A stretch of 58,617 bases of DNA from NCBI GenBank assembly GCA_021792185.1, contig JAJYVD010000010.1, forward strand, positions 1 to 58,617, read 5' to 3'. Under the pieces are notes generated by a model. The model made no database searches and had not been told where the DNA came from. It saw only the letters and a list, made by a program, of their open reading frames with translations. This DNA comes from Nitrospirota bacterium (GTDB taxonomy: Bacteria > Nitrospirota > Thermodesulfovibrionia > Thermodesulfovibrionales > Dissulfurispiraceae). Made by a program: the position numbers and the translations under genes. Positions 5,301-57,188 of the stretch are shown one piece after another; position 1 is the first letter of the stretch; each line of letters begins with the position of its first letter.

Positions 5301-5390
<90 letters not shown>

Positions 5391-5398
5391 AAAAACAA

Positions 5399-5433
5399 CA
5401 GTAATCAGTCATCAGTGATCAGTGAATAGTTTA
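5399..5433. repeat. Tandem heptamer array (CAGTNAT) beside tRNA-Ser
   Basis: Five consecutive 7-bp units start at 5399: CAGTAAT, CAGTCAT, CAGTGAT, CAGTGAA and the degenerate TAGTTTA. The array begins 9 bp upstream of the 5' end of tRNA-Ser, where its promoter would be expected. No facing arm is visible. Same type of sequence as the other short-unit arrays in the window, but with a different unit. Confidence 0.75.
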
Positions 5434-5490: not shown

Positions 5491-5690
5491 GAAGCGGAAG
5501 ACAAAGTATTGGAGCGACTTCGGCAGCCCAAGCGTAACGCAGGTTAAGGTTGAGGTTAAGGTTAAGAAAGAAAAACTCAGCCTCAACCTTAGCCTTAACC
5601 TGTCGTTGAAAGGCGGGATGCCTTTCGAGAATGAAGCGGAAATGCTTTGGCTTCCGGCATGAAAACATTTATAAAGGCTTTGAAGCCATG
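5491..5690. repeat. Palindromic element A, copy 1 (middle replaced by hexamer hairpin)
   Basis: The gene-free stretch 5391-5705 holds this element, which ends about 15 bp from the tadA stop codon. Its block at 5500-5538 matches 57696-57734 in inverted orientation at 37 of 39 positions, and 5608-5644 matches 57626-57662 at 36 of 37. The two ends also resemble each other as inverted repeats (GCCGAAGC... against ...GCTTCCGGC). The 69 bp between the conserved blocks is unrelated to the other copy and is made of the hexamer hairpin annotated separately. Adjoining sequence 5665-5697 resembles the terminal repeat of the element at 10211-10543. Confidence 0.8.
5540..5602. repeat. Inverted hexamer array (AGGTTA) hairpin
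   Basis: A left arm of AGGTTA/AGGTTG units (5540-5566) faces a right arm of CCTTAA/CCTCAA units (5576-5602) across a 9-nt A-rich loop. Of 27 paired positions 22 are Watson-Crick; three of the other five are G-T wobbles on the plus strand. The same unit makes the hairpin at 40356-40451. Confidence 0.85.
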
Positions 5691-24375: not shown

Positions 24376-25769
24376 TAATAGACATCCTCTTCGGATTCGT
24401 ACGAGACGTTCGCGAAATCGACGAATCTCGTGCTGTCCGCTAAATAGGTGAGATTTACCGTGCCGGTAGGCCCGTTCCTCTGCTTTGCGATATTCACCTC
24501 TGCCTTGCCTTTATTGGAAGGGTTGTTTTTATTGTATATCTCATCGCGGTAAATAAACATTATCACATCCGCGTCCTGCTCAATTGCCCCGGATTCCCTG
24601 AGATCCGCAAGCGTGGGTTTCTTCTCTCCACGCTGCTCTACGGCCCTGTTCAACTGGCTGAGGGCTATGACAGGAACCCTCAGTTCCTTTGCGAGCGCCT
24701 TTAGCGACCTGGATATTTCCGATATCTCCTGCTCCCTGCGCTCAAAATTTCCCCTGCTCCTCATGAGCTGGAGGTAATCCACAACAACGAGGCTCAATCC
24801 CCCATGCTCCATCTTTAACCTGCGGGCCTTTGCGCGGACTTCAAGCACTGTAATGGCGGACGAATCGTCTATAAATATAAGAGCGTCCGCGAGCCGCCCT
24901 GCCGCGTTGGTGAGCTTCGGCCAGTCCTGCTTGCCTATAAAACCCTTTCTCACATGGGAGGCATTCACCATGCTCTCCGAGCAGAGCATCCTCATCGCAA
25001 GCTGTTCCTTCGACATCTCAAGGCTGAATATGGCCACCGGCTCTTTGAGGTCGATTGCCACATGCTGGGCTATGTTAAGGGCAAAGGCGGTCTTTCCCAT
25101 GCCGGGCCTGCCGCCGATGATTATCAGATCGCTGGGCTGAAATCCGGCTGTCAGCTCGTCTATATCCTTAAATCCGGAAGGAACGCCTGTAATGGCCTCT
25201 TTTTTATCATAGAGGTGCTCTATCATCTTAAAGGTATCTTTAATGACGTCCTTCAGGCTCGCAAATGATGTCTTTGTCCTCTTGTCCGCGATGTCGAATA
25301 CCATCTTCTCCGCGTAATCCACCATTTCGTCAGCGTCGCGGCTGTCTTCATAAACTTCGGTGGTAATCTGGGTAGCGGTTTTTATTAATGCCCTGAGCAG
25401 CGCCTTTTCCCTTACTATCTTCGCGTGATAACGGATATTCGCGGACGTCGGAACGGCATTAGCAAGATTGGAAAGATAAGAAATACCGCCCACGGAATCG
25501 AGTTCATCGCTTCTTCTGAGATAATCCGTAAGGGTGATAATATCTATGGGCTCGTTCTTCTCGAAAAGACCCATCATAGCATTGTATAAACGCCTGTGGG
25601 TATCCTTGTAGAAATCCTCCGAGCCGAGCATTTCGAGGGCTTTTGGAAGGGCCTCGTTATCGAGTATGATCGCGCCGAGGACAGACTGCTCCGCCTCTAT
25701 GTTCTGGGGGGGCAGCTTGTCGATCATATCCTTTGAACTTAAATTGACCTCTCTCAAAACTACCCCCAT
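24375..25769 (-). CDS. dnaB: Replicative DNA helicase DnaB
   Basis: 464 residues. N-terminal domain LPPQNIEAEQSVLGAIILD (about 18-36), RecA-like domain with Walker A GGRPGMGKTAFAL, Walker B LVVVDYLQLM and QLNRAVE. Unwinds DNA at the replication fork. Start is ATG 25769 or ATG 25727 (MIDKLPPQ). It follows rplI as in many bacteria; a repeat array separates them. Confidence 0.96.
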   Translation of the reverse strand: MGVVLREVNLSSKDMIDKLPPQNIEAEQSVLGAIILDNEALPKALEMLGSEDFYKDTHRRLYNAMMGLFEKNEPIDIITLTDYLRRSDELDSVGGISYLSNLANAVPTSANIRYHAKIVREKALLRALIKTATQITTEVYEDSRDADEMVDYAEKMVFDIADKRTKTSFASLKDVIKDTFKMIEHLYDKKEAITGVPSGFKDIDELTAGFQPSDLIIIGGRPGMGKTAFALNIAQHVAIDLKEPVAIFSLEMSKEQLAMRMLCSESMVNASHVRKGFIGKQDWPKLTNAAGRLADALIFIDDSSAITVLEVRAKARRLKMEHGGLSLVVVDYLQLMRSRGNFERREQEISEISRSLKALAKELRVPVIALSQLNRAVEQRGEKKPTLADLRESGAIEQDADVIMFIYRDEIYNKNNPSNKGKAEVNIAKQRNGPTGTVNLTYLADSTRFVDFANVSYESEEDVY

Positions 25770-25773
25770 TTTT

Positions 25774-25877
25774 CGTTATAGCGTTATAGCGTTATTGCGT
25801 TGTAGCGTTATAGAATAGTGTTTATAGCGTTCAATCCTTCGTTTATCGCTATAACGCTTTACGCTTCACGCTCAACG
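25774..25877. repeat. Inverted octamer array (CGTTATAG) between rplI and dnaB
   Basis: Five octamers CGTTATAG, CGTTATAG, CGTTATTG, CGTTGTAG, CGTTATAG (25774-25813) face CTATAACG, CTTTACG, CTTCACG and CTCAACG (25849-25877). The right arm enters the rplI gene and encodes its last residues (EREA) and stop. Same unit as 32175-32248 and 33382-33474. The hairpin could attenuate dnaB transcription. Confidence 0.85.
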
Positions 25878-26305
25878 ATTACATTTACCTGGGCCGAAAC
25901 CGCCTGATGAATCTTTACGTTAACCGTATAACTGCCGAGCCTTTTTATCGGCTCATCGAGCACGATTTTCTTTTTGTCTATGTCGAGCCCCTCTTTTTTC
26001 AACGCCTCGGCAATATCCATGGCCGTGACAGAGCCGAAAAGCTTATCTTCTTCACCGGACTTTGCCTTTATAGTTATAGATGTCCCTGAAATCTTCGCAG
26101 CCATATCTTCGGCTGCCGACTTAGCCTTTTTCACAAGCTCCTGTATCTTTCTCTTTTCATGCTCGAGTGCCTTGAGATTCTTGGGATTGGCCTCGACCGC
26201 AAGCCCTTTCGGTATCAGAAAATTCCTCGCAAACCCGTCCTTGACGTTTACCATATCCCCTATATGGCCTACATCTCTCACATTGTCCTTAAGAATAACC
26301 TGCAT
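25859..26305 (-). CDS. rplI: Ribosomal protein bL9
   Basis: 148 residues, normal length. N-terminal LKDVRDVG-like motif with GHIGDMVNVKDGFARNFLIPKGLA, a long connecting helix (about 45-75) and a C-terminal domain. Good ribosome-binding site (GGAGAAT) before the start. The C-terminal codons lie in the octamer repeat. Confidence 0.96.
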   Translation of the reverse strand: MQVILKDNVRDVGHIGDMVNVKDGFARNFLIPKGLAVEANPKNLKALEHEKRKIQELVKKAKSAAEDMAAKISGTSITIKAKSGEEDKLFGSVTAMDIAEALKKEGLDIDKKKIVLDEPIKRLGSYTVNVKIHQAVSAQVNVIVEREA

Positions 26306-33381: not shown

Positions 33382-33474
33382 TCGTTATAGCGTAAAGCGA
33401 AACGCGTTATTGCGCAAATAAAATTTTTTCAACTGTTTAACTCTATAACCCTCAACGCTATAACGCTTTACTCC
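33382..33474. repeat. Inverted octamer array overlapping the copA stop
   Basis: TCGTTATAG, CGTAAAG, CGAAACG, CGTTATTG (33382-33412) face CTCTATAA, CCCTCAA, CGCTATAA, CGCTTTA (33441-33472). The copA stop codon TAG (33458-33460) and its last residues (SKAL) are in the right arm. Confidence 0.8.
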
Positions 33475-35767
33475 TTAGCCTTAAGGAATTACTCACGACC
33501 GAAACCGAACTGAAGGCCATTGCCGCCGACGCGATCATTGGGTTGAGCAGCGGCCCGCCGAAAGGATAAAGGAGTCCGGCCGCAACCGGAATACCCACTA
33601 CGTTATAAAAAAATGCCCAGAAAAGATTCTGCTTTATGGTATTGATGGTAAGCCTGCTCAACCTGATGGCATCCACTACGCTTTTCAGATTGCCTTTTAT
33701 GATTGTTATATCCGAAGCCTCTATAGCTATATCGGTGCCGGTGCCTATGGCAATGCCCACGTCCGCTTCGGCAAGAGCCGGGGCATCGTTAATGCCGTCG
33801 CCTACCATAGCGGTAACCTTTCCCTCGGATTTTACCTTTCTCAAAACCTCGACCTTTTGATCCGGCATGACTTCCGCCACGAATCTGTCAATCCCGGCCT
33901 CTTTTGCAATTGCCCTCGCGGTGTTTTGATGATCACCGGTAAGCATTATAACATCAATCCCCATATTTTTCAGCTCGCTGACGGCTTCCAAAGACCCTTC
34001 TTTTATAGTATCGGCTATCGAAAATACCGACTTAATCTCGTTATCGACAGCCATGAAAACCGGGGTTTTAGCCTCAAAAGATATTTTCTCAGAAAATGAC
34101 TCTACAGTCAATATATTTATATTTTCCCGCCGCATCATTCCTTCATTACCGATAAAAACATTTGAATAGAGTTCAGAGTTAGGAGTTAGGAGTTCCATGG
34201 GTTCTTGACTCTTAACTCTTAACTCTTGACTCCTGATTTTCGCTTTTATCCCTCCTCCGGGGATAACTGTAAACTCAACCGGCTCTGAAATCTTCAAACC
34301 TTTTTCCGCAGCTTTTCTTACTATTGCCTGCCCGAGGGGATGTTCGGACAGTTTTTCCGCAGATGCGGCGATCTGCAAAGCAACTTCAGGCGATAGGCTA
34401 TAGGTGATGGGTGAGGAGGATGCCTCTTGCCCATTGCCTGTTATGATTATATCCACCACTTCGGGTTCGCCTTTTGTTATCGTGCCTGTCTTATCCAATA
34501 TCACCGCCCCGATCTTATGGGATAATTCCAGCGCCCCGGCATCCCTTATGAGTATGCCTTTCTCAGCGCCCTTTCCAGTTCCTACCATTATTGCAGTCGG
34601 CGTCGCAAGACCCAACGCGCACGGACAGGCTATGATCAGCACCGCAATAAAATTCATCAATGCGAGAGTGAACGAAGGCTTGGGGCCGAACGCGAACCAT
34701 ACAACAAAAGTAATCAGCGCGATCCCTATTACCACCGGCACAAAAACGGAGGCGACCTTATCCGCAAGCCTCTGAATGGGCGCTTTGCTTCCCTGCGCTT
34801 CTTCGACAAGCCTTATTATCTGCGATAATGCCGTATCCTTGCCTACTTTTAACGCCCTCAGTTTAAAACTCCCCACCTTGTTAACAGTTCCGCCGAAGAC
34901 CTTATCTCCCGGAGATTTTTCAAGCGGCAGGCTTTCTCCGGTGAGCATGGATTCGTCCACCGTGGAATAGCCGTCAACAACCTCGCCGTCAACCGGTATC
35001 CTCTCTCCGGGCCTGACAATAACAATGTCTCCGGCAGTAACTTCCCCTATCGGTATATTTTTCTCTTCACCGTCCCTTATAACAAAGGCCGTTTTTGCCT
35101 GCAGCCCCATGAGCTTTCTTATCGCGTCGGAAGTCTTGCCTTTCGCCTTCGCCTCAAGAAGCCTGCCCAAAAGGATAAGGGTTATTATGGTAGCCGATGT
35201 ATCGAAATATACATGGGGAGTTATCCCTCCCTTAAAAAACAGTTCCGGCATGAATGTGGCCGCCAAACTATAGATATAGGCAGACGTAGTTCCTACGCTT
35301 ATCAGCGTATTCATGTTGGTTGTGCGGTGCTTAAGCGCGGAAATGGCCGCCTTATGAAACTTCAAGCCGCTCCAGAACTGAACAGGTGTCGCGAGGAGGA
35401 ATAACAGATACCAGTTGGACAAAACCGGAAGGGCAATCATGCTTCCGATGATGATTGGAGCGGTAAGTATCGCGCTTGAGATAAACCCTTTTTTTAATTC
35501 ATTAAATTCCTTCTCCCGCTGCTCGCGCTCCCTGTCGATGAATTCTTCTGTTATCTGCTCCGCGGAATAGCCTGCCTCCGCGATTATCTTTTTGAAGTCT
35601 TCAAAACCGGTCATCTCAGGCATAAATTCAACGGTCGCCCTCTCGGCCGGAAGGTTCACAACCGCGCTCACAACGCCGGGAATATCCCTGAGCACCCTCT
35701 CAACAGCAGAAGAACAGGCAGCGCATGTCATGCCTCTTACGCTGAAATCAATCAGTTTTGCCTTCAC
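33458..35767 (-). CDS. copA: Copper-exporting P-type ATPase
   Basis: 769 residues. One N-terminal heavy-metal domain (GMTCAACSS, CxxC about 14-17), membrane helices, TGES actuator loop, the copper-type CPC in ACPCALGL, phosphorylation site DKTGT, EHPLG and GDGINDAP. Exports Cu(I). The nucleotide-binding domain carries two low-complexity inserts (about residues 441-460 and 511-533) exactly where heptamer arrays lie in the DNA. Probably still functional because frame and motifs are kept. No copper regulator nearby. Confidence 0.93.
34169..34232. repeat. Inverted heptamer array inside copA (first)
   Basis: Left arm GAGTTCA, GAGTTAG, GAGTTAG, GAGTTCC (34169-34196); 8-nt loop; right arm TTGACTC, TTAACTC, TTAACTC, TTGACTC (34205-34232). 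It is in frame and translated as [10 protein letters not shown] and TPNSEL segments. Confidence 0.9.
34389..34441. repeat. Inverted heptamer array inside copA (second)
   Basis: Left arm GGCGATA, GGCTATA, GGTGATG, GGTGAGG (34389-34416); right arm TGCCTCT, TGCCCAT, TGCCTGT (34421-34441). Translated in CopA as [12 protein letters not shown], shortly after the DKTGT motif. Confidence 0.75.
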
Positions 35768-39628: not shown

Positions 39629-40471
39629 CTACCAACTCCCTGACGCTCCTCCTCCTCCAAAGCCTCCGCCCCCGCCGCCGCCGAACCCTCCTCCGAATCC
39701 GCCGCCGCCGGACCAGCCGCTTCTTCTACCGCCCATCGATGAACTTAACAACAGCAGAAGCAGAAGACGCGGATGCTTTATGAAAAGAAAGACAATTACC
39801 CCGAATACCGCAAAAAGTATTATGGCATCAAAAAATCCAAGTCCTTTTTTGCCTTTCGCCGACTGTCTGTCGCCCCTTGCCTTTATCTTAGGCATTCCTG
39901 TTATTTCTACGCCTTCATGTTCCGCTATCTTTTGCGCTATGACAACAGAGGCATTGAATATGCCGGTACTGTAATCTCCCTTTCTGAAATACGGAACAAG
40001 GTGCTGCCTTCCTATGGAACCTGCAAGGCTGTCTGGCAATATTCCCTCTATCCCGTAACCGGTCTCGATCCTGTATTTCCTGTCATTCAGCGCAACGGTT
40101 ATCAGCACGCCGTTGTCTTTGCCCTTTTGTCCCGGTTTCCACCTTTCGGCAATTTTAAGGGAAAAACCCTCGATGTCTTCTCCATCGAGGCTCTGCACGG
40201 TAAGAACGAACACCTGCGCGGTCGTCTTCTGCTCAAGTTCCTTAAGATATGCATTCAGCCTCGCTTCCATATCATCGTTTATTATTCCTGCGAGGTCATT
40301 GACATAGTTGGACGGAACCTTTGACGGCTCGGGAGTAGAGGCAAAAGATAAAATCGAGGTTAAGGTTAAGGCTAAGGTTAAGGCTAAGTATAAAACACAA
40401 GAACTTCTTTTTATTTCTTTAAATCTCAACCTTAACCTCAGCCTCAACCTGTCTTTAAAGCCGAATTTCAT
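39629..40471 (-). CDS. TPM-domain exported protein with Gly-rich tail (YgcG-like)
   Basis: 280 residues. Export signal, TPM domain (about 50-190, with VNDLAGII, AQVFVLTV, NGVLITVALNDRKYRIETGYG), a membrane helix (about 217-240) and a tail of Gly with Ser/Phe. Usual partner of LemA. The first 45 residues are repeat-encoded (DRLRLRLRLR and LALTLALTLT come from the hexamer hairpin), yet still form a basic stretch plus hydrophobic core. It overlaps the nucleotidyltransferase gene by 17 bp. Confidence 0.85.
   Translation of the reverse strand: MKFGFKDRLRLRLRLRFKEIKRSSCVLYLALTLALTLTSILSFASTPEPSKVPSNYVNDLAGIINDDMEARLNAYLKELEQKTTAQVFVLTVQSLDGEDIEGFSLKIAERWKPGQKGKDNGVLITVALNDRKYRIETGYGIEGILPDSLAGSIGRQHLVPYFRKGDYSTGIFNASVVIAQKIAEHEGVEITGMPKIKARGDRQSAKGKKGLGFFDAIILFAVFGVIVFLFIKHPRLLLLLLLSSSMGGRRSGWSGGGGFGGGFGGGGGGGFGGGGASGSW
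40356..40451. repeat. Inverted hexamer array in the TPM gene signal region
   Basis: Left arm GAGGTTAAGG-type units (40356-40388) and right arm CTCAACCTTAACC-type units (40425-40451), 36 nt apart. Same unit as 5540-5602, 35 kb away. In frame with the TPM gene, encoding Leu/Arg and Leu/Thr/Ala repeats. Confidence 0.88.
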
Positions 40472-53752: not shown

Positions 53753-56167
53753 ATGGCTGAAACAGAAAAGAATAACGATAAAGAACAGGTGGAGATTCCG
53801 GATATATTACCGGTGCTGCCTGCACGGGATATCGTCGTCTTTCCATATATGATATTGCCGCTTTTCGTGGGGAGGGATGTTTCCATTAAAGCCATCGACC
53901 ATTCCCTGAACACGAACAGGATGATACTGCTCCTTACCCAGAAAGACCTGAATATAGAGTCTCCTTCTCCGAACGACCTATATTCGACAGGAACCGTCTG
54001 CATGATCATGAGGATGCTCAAACTGCCGGACGGACGCGTCAAAATATTAGCGCAGGGATTGAGTAAGGCGCAAGTCATAAAATTCTCCCAGCAGGAGCCT
54101 TTCTTTATGGCCAAGATAGAAAAAACTACCGAAGAAAAGGCAGTGGAGATGACTCTCGAAAACGAGGCATTGATACGAAACGTGAAAGAGCAGATGGACA
54201 AGGCCGTATCTCTCGGCAAGACCATACTGCCGGACGTGATGGTAGTTATAGAAAACATCGATGACCCCGGAAGGCTTGCGGATCTTATAGCGTCGAATTT
54301 AGGGCTTAAGACTGATCAAGCGCAGGAGATACTGGAGATGTCCGACCCTATCGAGCGGCTGAAAAAAATAAGCGAAATACTCTCGCGTGAGATACAGCTT
54401 TTGACCATTCAGCAAAAAATACAGACCGAGGCGCGCGGTGAAATAGACAAGACCCAGCGTGAATACTTCCTGCGCGAGCAGCTCAAGGCGATACAAAGGG
54501 AACTCGGGGACATAGACGAACGCGCCGAAGAGGCAAGGGAGTTCAGGAAAAAAATAGAAGAAGCCAAGATGCCGGAGAAGGTCATGAAGGAGGCCGAAAA
54601 ACAGCTCAAGCGCCTCGAAAAAATGCATCCGGACAGCGCGGAGGCCGGTACTATAAGGACATATCTCGAATGGCTCACGGAAATCCCGTGGTCAAAGAGC
54701 ACAAAGGATAATCTCGATATAAAGACGGCGGAAAAGATATTAAATGAAGACCATTATGACCTCGAAAAAATAAAAGAGAGGATACTCGAATACCTGAGCG
54801 TAAGAAAGCTCAAAGAAAAGATGAAAGGCCCAATACTCTGTTTTATAGGCCCTCCCGGAGTCGGAAAGACTTCCCTCGGACGCTCCATAGCGCGGTCGCT
54901 CGGAAGGGAATTCGTGAGAATGTCCCTCGGAGGCGTCCGGGACGAGGCGGAAATAAGGGGACACAGAAGGACATATGTCGGCTCCCTTCCCGGAAGGATA
55001 ATACAAGGAATAAAGAACGCAGGAACGAACAATCCCGTATTCATGCTCGACGAAGTGGACAAAATCGGCATGGACTTCAGGGGAGACCCGTCTTCCGCAC
55101 TCCTTGAGGTGCTCGACCCTGAACAAAACAATTCCTTTATGGACCACTATCTGGCGGTTCCCTTCGACCTGTCGAACGTCATGTTCATAACGACAGGAAA
55201 TCTTACGGACACAATACCAGGGCCATTGAGAGACAGAATGGAGATACTCTATCTTTCAGGATATACCGAAGAGGAAAAACTGGAGATAGCGAAAAAATAT
55301 CTTGTGCCGAAACAGCTCGAAGAGCACGGTATAACAACAAAAATATTAACATTAAACGATTCGGCCGTAAAACAGATAATATCCCATTATACACGGGAGG
55401 CAGGGGTCAGAAACCTTGAGCGCGAGATCGCAAACCTTTGCAGAAAAATTGCGAAACAGGTTGCGGAGGGAAAGGCAAAACGGTTCAATGTCACCGCGGG
55501 GAACGTCCACAAATACCTCGGAGTTCAAAAATATCTGCCGGAAGAAGAGATGAAAAAAAGCGAAATAGGCGTCGCCACAGGTCTTGCATGGACAGAGGCC
55601 GGCGGAGATATTATATATGTCGAAGCGACCATGATGAAGGGTAAAGGCAGTCTTACCCTGACAGGACAATTGGGCGACGTTATGAAAGAGTCTGCACAGG
55701 CCGCATTGAGCTATATCAGGTCAAAAGCCAAGAAACTCGATATAAGCGATGATACCTTCTCGAAGACCGATCTCCATATCCATGTCCCGGCAGGCGCAAT
55801 CCCGAAAGACGGGCCTTCAGCGGGCATAACAATGGCTACCGCCATAGCCTCGGCTCTTACCAGCAAGCCCGTGAGAAAAAACGTTGCAATGACGGGAGAG
55901 GTAACGCTGAGAGGAAAGGTTCTTCCCATCGGAGGGCTGAAGGAAAAAACACTCGCTGCCAAGCGGATGGGGATAAAAACGGTAATAATCCCTCACAGGA
56001 ATAAAAAGGACCTCGAAGACCTTCCGAAGTATGTTAAGGAAGGAATGAACTTTATCCTCGCAGAGACAATGGACGACGTTTTAAAGATTGCGGTAGGCAA
56101 TGGGAAAAATGAAACTTCAAAAAATAGGAGAACTAAAACTTCTCCAAGAAATAAGAAAAAGGTTTAA
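53753..56167 (+). CDS. lon: ATP-dependent protease Lon
   Basis: 804 residues. LON substrate domain (about 15-210), AAA domain with Walker [10 protein letters not shown] (about 366-374) and EVDKIG, protease domain with catalytic Ser in [12 protein letters not shown] and Lys in [12 protein letters not shown]. Degrades misfolded and regulatory proteins. The basic tail ([14 protein letters not shown]) goes beyond the usual end and overlaps thiL. Confidence 0.97.
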
Positions 56168-57188
56168 AACCGAAGACAACGGCATCATCCTCGGCATCGG
56201 GGACGATGCCGCCGTCCTTGTCCCTCAAAAAGAAAACCTCCTCGTTACGACGGATATGATGAACGAGGGGATACATTTCGATCTGAGCTTTACCTCGCCT
56301 TTTCAGCTCGGCTTTAAATTGGTCTCTATCAATGTGAGCGATATTATGGCGATGGGAGGCAGGCCGAAATATATATTCCTCAATGTCGCGTTGAAAAGCG
56401 ACGCAGACGAAGATATATTCTGGGATATGTATGAAGGCATTTCAAAGGCAATGGAAATGTACAGCGTGAAACTGGCAGGGGGAGACCTGTGCGCTGCAAA
56501 GAATGATATGGTTTTATCCGCTACCGTGATCGGCGCCGCCGAAAAATTTATCACAAGGTCAGGCGCAAAGGCAGGCGATAAAATTTATATAACCGGCACT
56601 CTCGGCGATTCGGCATGCGGGCTTGCTCTTCTGCAGCGACTTACGGATGAATCAAAGGAAATAGTTAATCGTATCGGGGCGCCGGGGTATCGGCGTATCT
56701 GTGAAAAATTGTATCTCCGATACCACGACACGCCGACACTCCGATACATTGATTTTGACACTGTTGAGCCTTTAATAACGAGGCATCTCACGCCTGTTGC
56801 GAGGGATTCCTCGGAAGTAGCAAAATACGCAACCTCGATGATAGATGTAAGCGACGGCCTTTTTATCGACCTCTGCAGGATATGCGATGAGAGTAATGTC
56901 GGAGCAAAAGTTTATCTCGATAGAATTCAAATTTCGGATGAGGCGAAGAATGCCGCTGAAATTATGGGATTAGACCCGATGCGGCTTGCAGTATCGGGCG
57001 GAGAGGACTACGAGCTTTTATTCACAGCGCCAGCAGAAAATAATTTCAAATTTCAAATCTCAAATCTCAAATCTCAAAAAATAACTTGCATCGGTGAAAT
57101 CATGGAAACGGATAGAATAGCGGTGGATAAGACCGGCAAAAAATTTCCCATAAAAGCAGAGGGGTACCAGCACTTTGGCGCTCCGTGA
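56109..57188 (+). CDS. thiL: Thiamine-monophosphate kinase
   Basis: About 359 residues from ATG 56109, 59 bp inside lon. [31 protein letters not shown] and [14 protein letters not shown] are ThiL motifs; it makes thiamine diphosphate. Two segments do not resemble the family: about 190-216 (GAPGYRRI ... TPTLRY) and about 312-324 (FKFQISNLK), both encoded by short tandem repeats. No other thi genes here. Confidence 0.93.
56671..56756. repeat. Inverted short-unit array inside thiL
   Basis: GTATCGG / GTATCGGCG units (56671-56700) face TCCGATACCACG and CCGACACTCCGATAC (56716-56756). In frame; encodes [20 protein letters not shown] in ThiL. Confidence 0.78.
57044..57078. repeat. Tandem heptamer array inside thiL
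   Basis: Five direct units: TTTCAAA twice, then TCTCAAA three times. Encodes [11 protein letters not shown] after the GGEDYELLF motif. No facing arm. Confidence 0.9.

What the first reader, a model, noticed from the sequence alone, without database searches (positions are those of the whole stretch)
34169..34441. Two hairpin arrays inserted in frame in the copper ATPase
Both arrays lie in the part coding for the nucleotide-binding domain, between DKTGT and GDGINDAP, and keep the frame. The DNA is plainly facing heptamers, and the protein segments (SQELRVK-, SPITYSLS-) look foreign to CopA. This implies selection kept only multiples of three in surface loops.
Basis: partly seen in the sequence, partly recalled or inferred. 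Interest (0 to 1): 0.6.

Follow-up and report, generated by a model that had tools for sequence, protein, structure and literature searches.

The report
Facing short-repeat arrays in protein loops
The copper-pump gene carries two short hairpin-like repeat arrays that are read as protein in surface loops, and they belong to hundreds of such arrays spread, always in the same left-right layout, through the ordinary genes of this groundwater bacterium and its relatives.

Summary
In copA (window 33458-35767, minus strand) array A (34169-34234) is two facing sets of GAGTTNN heptamers (DNA fold z -4.4); array B (34396-34440) is a worn one (z -3.4). Both code for loops that AlphaFold leaves disordered, between conserved N-domain elements, and most relatives lack them. 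The feature is not special to CopA. In a 459-kb sample of this Nitrospirota genome, 6-, 7- and 8-mer arrays are abundant (59 loci, roughly 340 per genome), no rarer in genes than in spacers, and sit in frame in metG, carA, carB, pyrC, glnD, hemW and others. Orthologues in sister species and genera carry different arrays, other palindromes, or nothing at the same loops. Stop-making units are missing exactly at the codon phase where they would stop translation (0 of 50 against 56 of 98). Every facing array puts the G-rich arm first: 34 loci to 0, and 39 of 395 phylum genomes against 0 for the reverse layout. Best reading: locally expanding, near-neutral short-repeat arrays, filtered by reading frame and protein fold, with loops re-used. 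It combines the convergent heptamer repeats of Xanthomonas with the in-frame palindromes of Rickettsia. The engine is unknown; no reverse transcriptase or Ku was found.

The parts
33458..35767 (-). copA, copper-translocating P1B ATPase, 769 aa (GTG start)
   Evidence: ORF list and translation; CopA structures at E 1e-188; Foldseek to 7r0g_A, TM 0.87 by target
34169..34195 (+). array A, G-rich arm of GAGTTNN heptamers
34196..34206 (.). array A spacer (hairpin loop)
   Evidence: sequence, fold
34207..34234 (+). array A, facing C-rich arm (AACTCTT heptamers); whole array A codes residues 512-533, about [22 protein letters not shown]
   Evidence: pLDDT < 50 at 518-531
34396..34416 (+). array B, G-rich arm, degenerate GGYNATR units
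   Evidence: sequence, fold z -3.44; shared only with G013
34423..34440 (+). array B, facing C-rich arm; whole array B codes residues 443-458, about [16 protein letters not shown]
   Evidence: pLDDT < 50 at 445-456
5541..5616 (+). same kind elsewhere in the window: facing hexamer array AGGTTA / TAACCT
25769..25877 (+). same kind: facing octamer array GCGTTATA in a gene spacer
40356..40446 (+). same kind: facing hexamer array AGGTTA / TAACCT at the 5' end of ORF 39629-40471 (-)
57040..57081 (+). same kind: CAAATCT heptamer array inside ORF 56100-57188 (+), single arm

Best explanation
The two inserts are members of a genome-wide population of short tandem arrays with 6-, 7- or 8-nt units, often in facing (convergent) pairs with the G-rich arm first. 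SHOWN: they lie in frame inside conserved, many of them essential, genes; the encoded peptides sit in exposed, disordered loops (modelled for CopA); the same loops hold other arrays or palindromes in relatives; unit composition follows codon phase so that stops are avoided; the polarity is strict. INFERRED: arrays start and grow locally by slippage and hairpin-templated (fold-back) copying during DNA synthesis, change length by whole units, and are occasionally exchanged between relatives by short-tract recombination anchored on the conserved motifs around the loop. In genes only copies that total a multiple of three, avoid stops and fall in a tolerant loop survive, as near-neutral passengers. 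No benefit to CopA is needed.
For: Period-7 (17) and period-8 (12) arrays against 0 in block shuffles and 2 and 1 in codon shuffles. 46 of 59 array loci lie wholly in called genes, random segments 72%; period 7/8 only, 28 of 34. Named host genes: metG, pyrC, carA, carB, glnD, hemW, nnr, lolC. Loop re-use in CopA, MetG, PyrC and CarA across six relatives, each with different repeat DNA. carA contraction of 24 nt = 3 octamers between G000 and G013; CopA of G006 lacks the left arm by an in-frame deletion. Stop-making GAGTTAA/TAG/TGA units 56 of 98 at the harmless phases and 0 of 50 at the stop phase. Both CopA inserts are disordered loops. Repeat-array loops also occur in G009, a one-contig genome, so this is not a binning artefact.
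Against: Slippage does not by itself explain why the G-rich arm is always first. Array A is 64 of 67 nt identical between the window and G007 (another genus) while the rest of the gene is 76% identical (binomial 3e-5), with no synonymous change: too alike for a neutral insert inherited since the genera split, and no long recombinant tract surrounds it. The frame rule is partly an effect of looking in ORFs.
Confidence: 0.55

Rival explanations
1. Mobile hairpin element: each array is a small non-autonomous element that inserts as a unit, moved in trans by a host or IS enzyme such as a Y1 (RAYT-type) transposase.
For: Array A occupies the same codon in two genera with nearly identical DNA and sharp edges. 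Array-bearing genomes G000, G006, G007, G008, G013 and G023 carry 2-5 Y1 transposase matches, while G012, poor in arrays, has none.
Against: Units, unit lengths and arm lengths differ from copy to copy; only one arm of A at a time recurs elsewhere, not the whole array. Array-bearing G020, G029 and G030 have no Y1 gene. The 13 Y1 genes examined are not flanked by facing arrays.
Confidence: 0.2
2. Telomere-like end addition: G-rich repeats of 6-8 nt are added to both 3' ends at a break, which are then joined, leaving head-to-head arrays with the G-rich arm first.
For: Strict polarity: 34 G-first, 1 tie, 0 C-first; 39 of 395 genomes against 0 of 395 for the opposite layout; the same with another unit in Anaerolineales, 4 of 7 against 0 of 7. 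DRT10 shows that a bacterial reverse transcriptase can make tandem-repeat DNA (PMC12632851).
Against: No RVT_1 match in the 99.4%-complete G000, nor in array-bearing G006, G013 or G023; no Ku in G000. Many different units coexist in one genome, which would need many templates. Single-arm arrays also exist.
Confidence: 0.12
3. The arrays are kept for a hairpin function in DNA or mRNA (stability, pausing, cruciform), and the peptide is a by-product.
For: DNA hairpins are stable and array A is the best conserved stretch of its length between the window and G007.
Against: Orthologues replace one array by another, by a different palindrome or by nothing; G006 has lost one arm; B folds little better than chance on its second strand.
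Confidence: 0.08
4. The loops give the proteins a useful property, such as regulation or interaction.
For: Loops are retained in essential enzymes.
Against: The peptide sequence is dictated by the DNA repeat and is unrelated between orthologues; AlphaFold sees no structure.
Confidence: 0.05

Closest known systems
Convergent heptameric GGGAATC / GGGGA(C/T)T repeats of Xanthomonas and Nostoc (Rehm et al. 2015, PMC4692102)
   Same: Tandem heptamers with variable positions, spread over the genome, not at the same genes in related species, with 70-75 pairs of repeats 'in convergent orientation' per genome.
   Different: There 89-93% are intergenic and the unit forms G-quadruplexes; here most lie in genes, in frame, with 6-, 7- and 8-mers and units such as GAGTTAA that lack G-tracts.
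Rickettsia palindromic elements, RPE (Ogata et al., reviewed in PMC2229807)
   Same: Palindromic repeats inserted in frame in conserved protein genes; one RPE-bearing gene product (Gmk) is translated and active, with a neutral or slightly harmful effect.
   Different: RPEs are 105-146 bp with terminal inverted repeats, in 19 genes in that report; here arrays of about 25-110 bp built of 6-8-nt units, of many unit types, perhaps 340 per genome.
TAACTGA direct repeats of Beggiatoaceae and cyanobacteria (MacGregor 2015, PMC4679880)
   Same: Heptamer arrays with stop-codon limits in ORFs noted.
   Different: Nearly all intergenic and direct, one inverted case; proposed as translational control.
Short tandemly repeated repetitive (STRR) heptanucleotides of cyanobacteria
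   Same: Heptamer tandem arrays dispersed in the genome (own knowledge; PMC4692102 mentions three in Calothrix).
   Different: Not read here beyond that mention; no in-frame facing arrays known to me.
REP/RAYT palindromes
   Same: Short hairpins in many copies.
   Different: No fixed palindrome, and no facing arrays around the Y1 genes.

Membership tests
Rickettsia-type palindromic elements | In-frame presence inside conserved protein genes | tested here: met
Rickettsia-type palindromic elements | 105-146 bp element with a family consensus and terminal inverted repeats | tested here: not met
   arrays of about 25-110 nt made of 6-8-nt units, with no shared whole-array consensus
Convergent heptamer repeats (Xanthomonas/Nostoc kind) | Tandem units of 7 nt with variable positions | tested here: met
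   6- and 8-mers also occur
Convergent heptamer repeats (Xanthomonas/Nostoc kind) | Pairs in convergent orientation | tested here: met
   34 of 35 loci G-rich arm first; 39 of 395 genomes against 0
Convergent heptamer repeats (Xanthomonas/Nostoc kind) | G-tract unit (GGGNATC) able to form quadruplexes | tested here: not met
   main unit GAGTTAA; not tested biophysically
Convergent heptamer repeats (Xanthomonas/Nostoc kind) | Mostly intergenic | tested here: not met
   46 of 59 loci within genes
REP/RAYT | Palindromes flank the Y1 transposase gene | tested here: not met
   13 Y1 loci; none flanked by facing arrays, one near a CCCATT-type single arm (L231) and one next to a gene with arrays (L232)
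Telomerase-like or DRT10 products | A reverse transcriptase and template RNA in the genome | tested here: not met
   no RVT_1 in G000, 99.4% complete; template RNA not sought
Transposable MITE | Target-site duplication and fixed ends | tested here: inconclusive
   no true empty site close enough to compare; loops differ in length and sequence

The most novel reading that the evidence does not exclude
A dedicated bacterial activity adds short G-rich repeats to both 3' ends at DNA breaks or gaps, and the healed ends leave head-to-head 'telomere-fusion-like' arrays throughout the genome. In genes these scars are kept as translated, fast-changing loops, so a repair process rewrites protein surface loops in several phyla.
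Probability: 0.12. Interest if true: 0.9.

Novelty: new variant of a known kind. Interest (0 to 1): 0.62.

Why it matters
Tandem repeats whose unit is not a multiple of three are expected to be purged from genes. Here they are as common in genes as outside, in core enzymes, and they remodel the same loops again and again in related species. That gives a natural series for testing how proteins accept new loops from junk DNA. The strict G-rich-arm-first layout, seen in two phyla with different units, is a clear clue to an unknown way of making repeat DNA. It also warns that loop 'insertions' in proteins from such genomes may be repeat-derived and not adaptive.

Tried and rejected
Assembly or binning artefact: rejected, since array B and the carA array are shared with G013, array A with G007, and repeat loops occur in one-contig G009. 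Ribosome bypass or removal of the segment: not needed, because stop-making units are avoided exactly by codon phase. Reverse-transcriptase origin: no RVT_1 in G000. End joining by Ku: none in G000. RAYT as mover: Y1 genes exist but are not flanked by facing arrays. Recent transfer of a long copA tract carrying array A from the G007 lineage: not seen; flanks are only about 64-83% identical. A first frame test with 150-nt windows was too noisy near gene ends (17 open through, 12 shifted or stopped, many of them at gene junctions), so I relied on orthologue alignments. One facing array listed as C-first was two merged arms; one tie remained. The CCCCCTTT...AAAGGGGG palindromes (G013 copA, G007 metG) are C-first and belong to another class.

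Full report
THE OBSERVATION. copA runs 35767 to 33458 on the minus strand (769 aa). Array A (34169-34234) is a left arm of GAGTTNN heptamers, an 11-nt spacer and a right arm of the complementary heptamers. It is found by the repeat finders, no period-7 array appears in five composition-preserving shuffles of the window, and as single-stranded DNA it folds at z -4.4. Array B (34396-34440) has the same facing layout with worn units; it folds at z -3.4 on one strand and -0.9 on the other. Both lie between DKTGT and GDGINDAP in an unbroken frame.

WHAT THE PROTEIN SAYS. Relatives of this CopA were collected from public genomes and from 31 genomes of the same family. Most have a short turn at both sites. 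At site A same-genus G012 has KVDGADIFIGN; sister G013 has NPPLPPFAKGGRGG from a CCCCCTTT...AAAGGGGG palindrome; G007, another genus, has the same array as the window; G006 has it without the left arm; G009 and G028 have other inserts. Site B is shared with G013 only. In Anaerolineales, another phylum, site B carries other heptamer arrays, for example SDQLSVSSDQLSVS from CAGTNNT units in L027. AlphaFold (31-sequence alignment, mean pLDDT 80.5) places both inserts in two of its three segments under pLDDT 50: 445-456 between a strand and a helix, and 518-531 in the turn of a beta hairpin. The model matches solved CopA-type ATPases.

IT IS GENOME-WIDE. The array-A unit recurs at some 30 places in the genome, and 27 of the 30 fetched loci show at least one array, most of them inside a long ORF. 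In 458.6 kb (20 stretches plus the window) arrays of period 7 and 8 number 17 and 12, against 0 in block shuffles; hexamers are also in excess. Merged, there are 59 loci; 46 lie inside called genes (78%; random segments 72%), 8 in spacers, 5 across gene ends. So the arrays are not depleted in genes. Hosts include MetG, PyrC, CarA, CarB, GlnD, HemW, NAD(P)H-hydrate repair, LolC and a PMR1-type ATPase, matched by their family models on both sides of the array.

LOOP RE-USE. MetG, PyrC and CarA orthologues from six relatives show the same as CopA: the loop that carries an array in this genome carries, in each relative, another array, another palindrome or a short loop. In MetG: CAAATTT heptamers (G000, G006), a CCCCCCC...GGGGGGG palindrome (G007), GAAGACA-type heptamers (G009). 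In CarA, G000 and G013 share a facing octamer array that differs by 24 nt, three octamers, the smallest in-frame step for an 8-mer.

READING FRAME. Because 7 and 3 have no common factor, a heptamer array passes through all three frames. GAGTTAA reads as a stop when its first base is the third codon position. In ORF-borne arrays units of the type GAGTTAA, GAGTTAG or GAGTTGA make up 56 of 98 at the two harmless phases and 0 of 50 at the stop phase, where GAGTCAA takes over. ORFs are open by definition, so this is partly ascertainment; but it shows that arrays in genes are matched to the frame by point variants, as expected if they are read by the ribosome.

POLARITY. In every facing 6-8-mer array the G-rich arm comes first: 34 loci, one tie, no exception (one search gave the same on the sample, its one exception being two merged arms). 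A facing pair reads the same on both strands, so this is a property of the array and not of the gene. Over 395 genomes of the phylum GAGTTNNGAGTT-gap-AACTCNNAACTC occurs in 39 genomes and 27 genera; the opposite layout in none. In seven Chloroflexota genomes reached through the CopA loci another unit gives 4 against 0. Rehm et al. describe convergent pairs of GGGAATC repeats in Xanthomonas (PMC4692102), which fits.

AGE OF ARRAY A. Between the window and G007 the array is 64 of 67 nt identical, the rest of copA 76%. On a slightly wider cut the chance of so few changes is 3e-5, no other stretch of that length outside reaches it, and all changed codons are non-synonymous. Flanks show no long recombinant tract. 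This remains unexplained: short-tract exchange anchored on GGGIKAK and VFIGNEG, insertion of one donor array twice, or DNA-level constraint are all open.

MECHANISM. Shown: the population, the frame match, the loop position in CopA, loop turnover, unit-sized length change, polarity. Inferred: growth by slippage with hairpin-templated copying, and passive filtering by selection. A telomere-like addition to both 3' ends of a break would produce exactly this layout and bacterial RTs that make tandem repeats exist (DRT10, PMC12632851), but no RVT_1 domain was found in this genome or in array-bearing G006, G013 and G023, nor Ku in this genome. Y1 transposases are present but are not flanked by facing arrays.

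NOVELTY. Heptamer arrays and convergent pairs are known as intergenic features; in-frame palindromes are known from Rickettsia as longer elements. I found no paper in the held library that joins the two or reports the polarity; the library lacks most subscription journals. I therefore call it a new variant of a known kind.

Noticed in passing
window 5397-5430: CAGTNAT heptamer array a few bases beyond the tRNA-Ser(cga) gene (5301-5390), the same unit family as the Beggiatoaceae and Anaerolineales arrays.
   Followed up: no
window 5541-5620 and L163 11608-11690: Near-identical AGGTTA/TAACCT facing hexamer arrays including their flanks at two places in the genome; probably a duplicated gene or region.
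   Followed up: no
L090 (G013 copA), residues about 459-530: This tract is only about 55-68% identical in DNA to the window while the rest of the gene is about 90%, so copA is mosaic around the loops.
   Followed up: partly
L163:5-3871: One 1289-aa ORF (BcrAD/BadFG, DUF2229, HGD-D domains) carries four separate octamer arrays, all in frame.
   Followed up: no
L090 site A; L173 metG loop: C-rich-first palindrome CCCCCTTT...AAAGGGGG (peptide PLPPFAKGG / PLPPHPPLTKGG) inserted in frame in different genes of different species; a separate repeat class with opposite polarity.
   Followed up: partly
genomes G020, G029, G030: These family members have GAGT arrays but no Y1 transposase match, while most other array-bearing relatives have some.
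   Followed up: partly
window 25769-25880: GCGTTATA facing octamer array in a gene spacer; similar GCGTTATA arrays lie elsewhere in the genome (L159 520, L164 3877, L168 10107).
   Followed up: no
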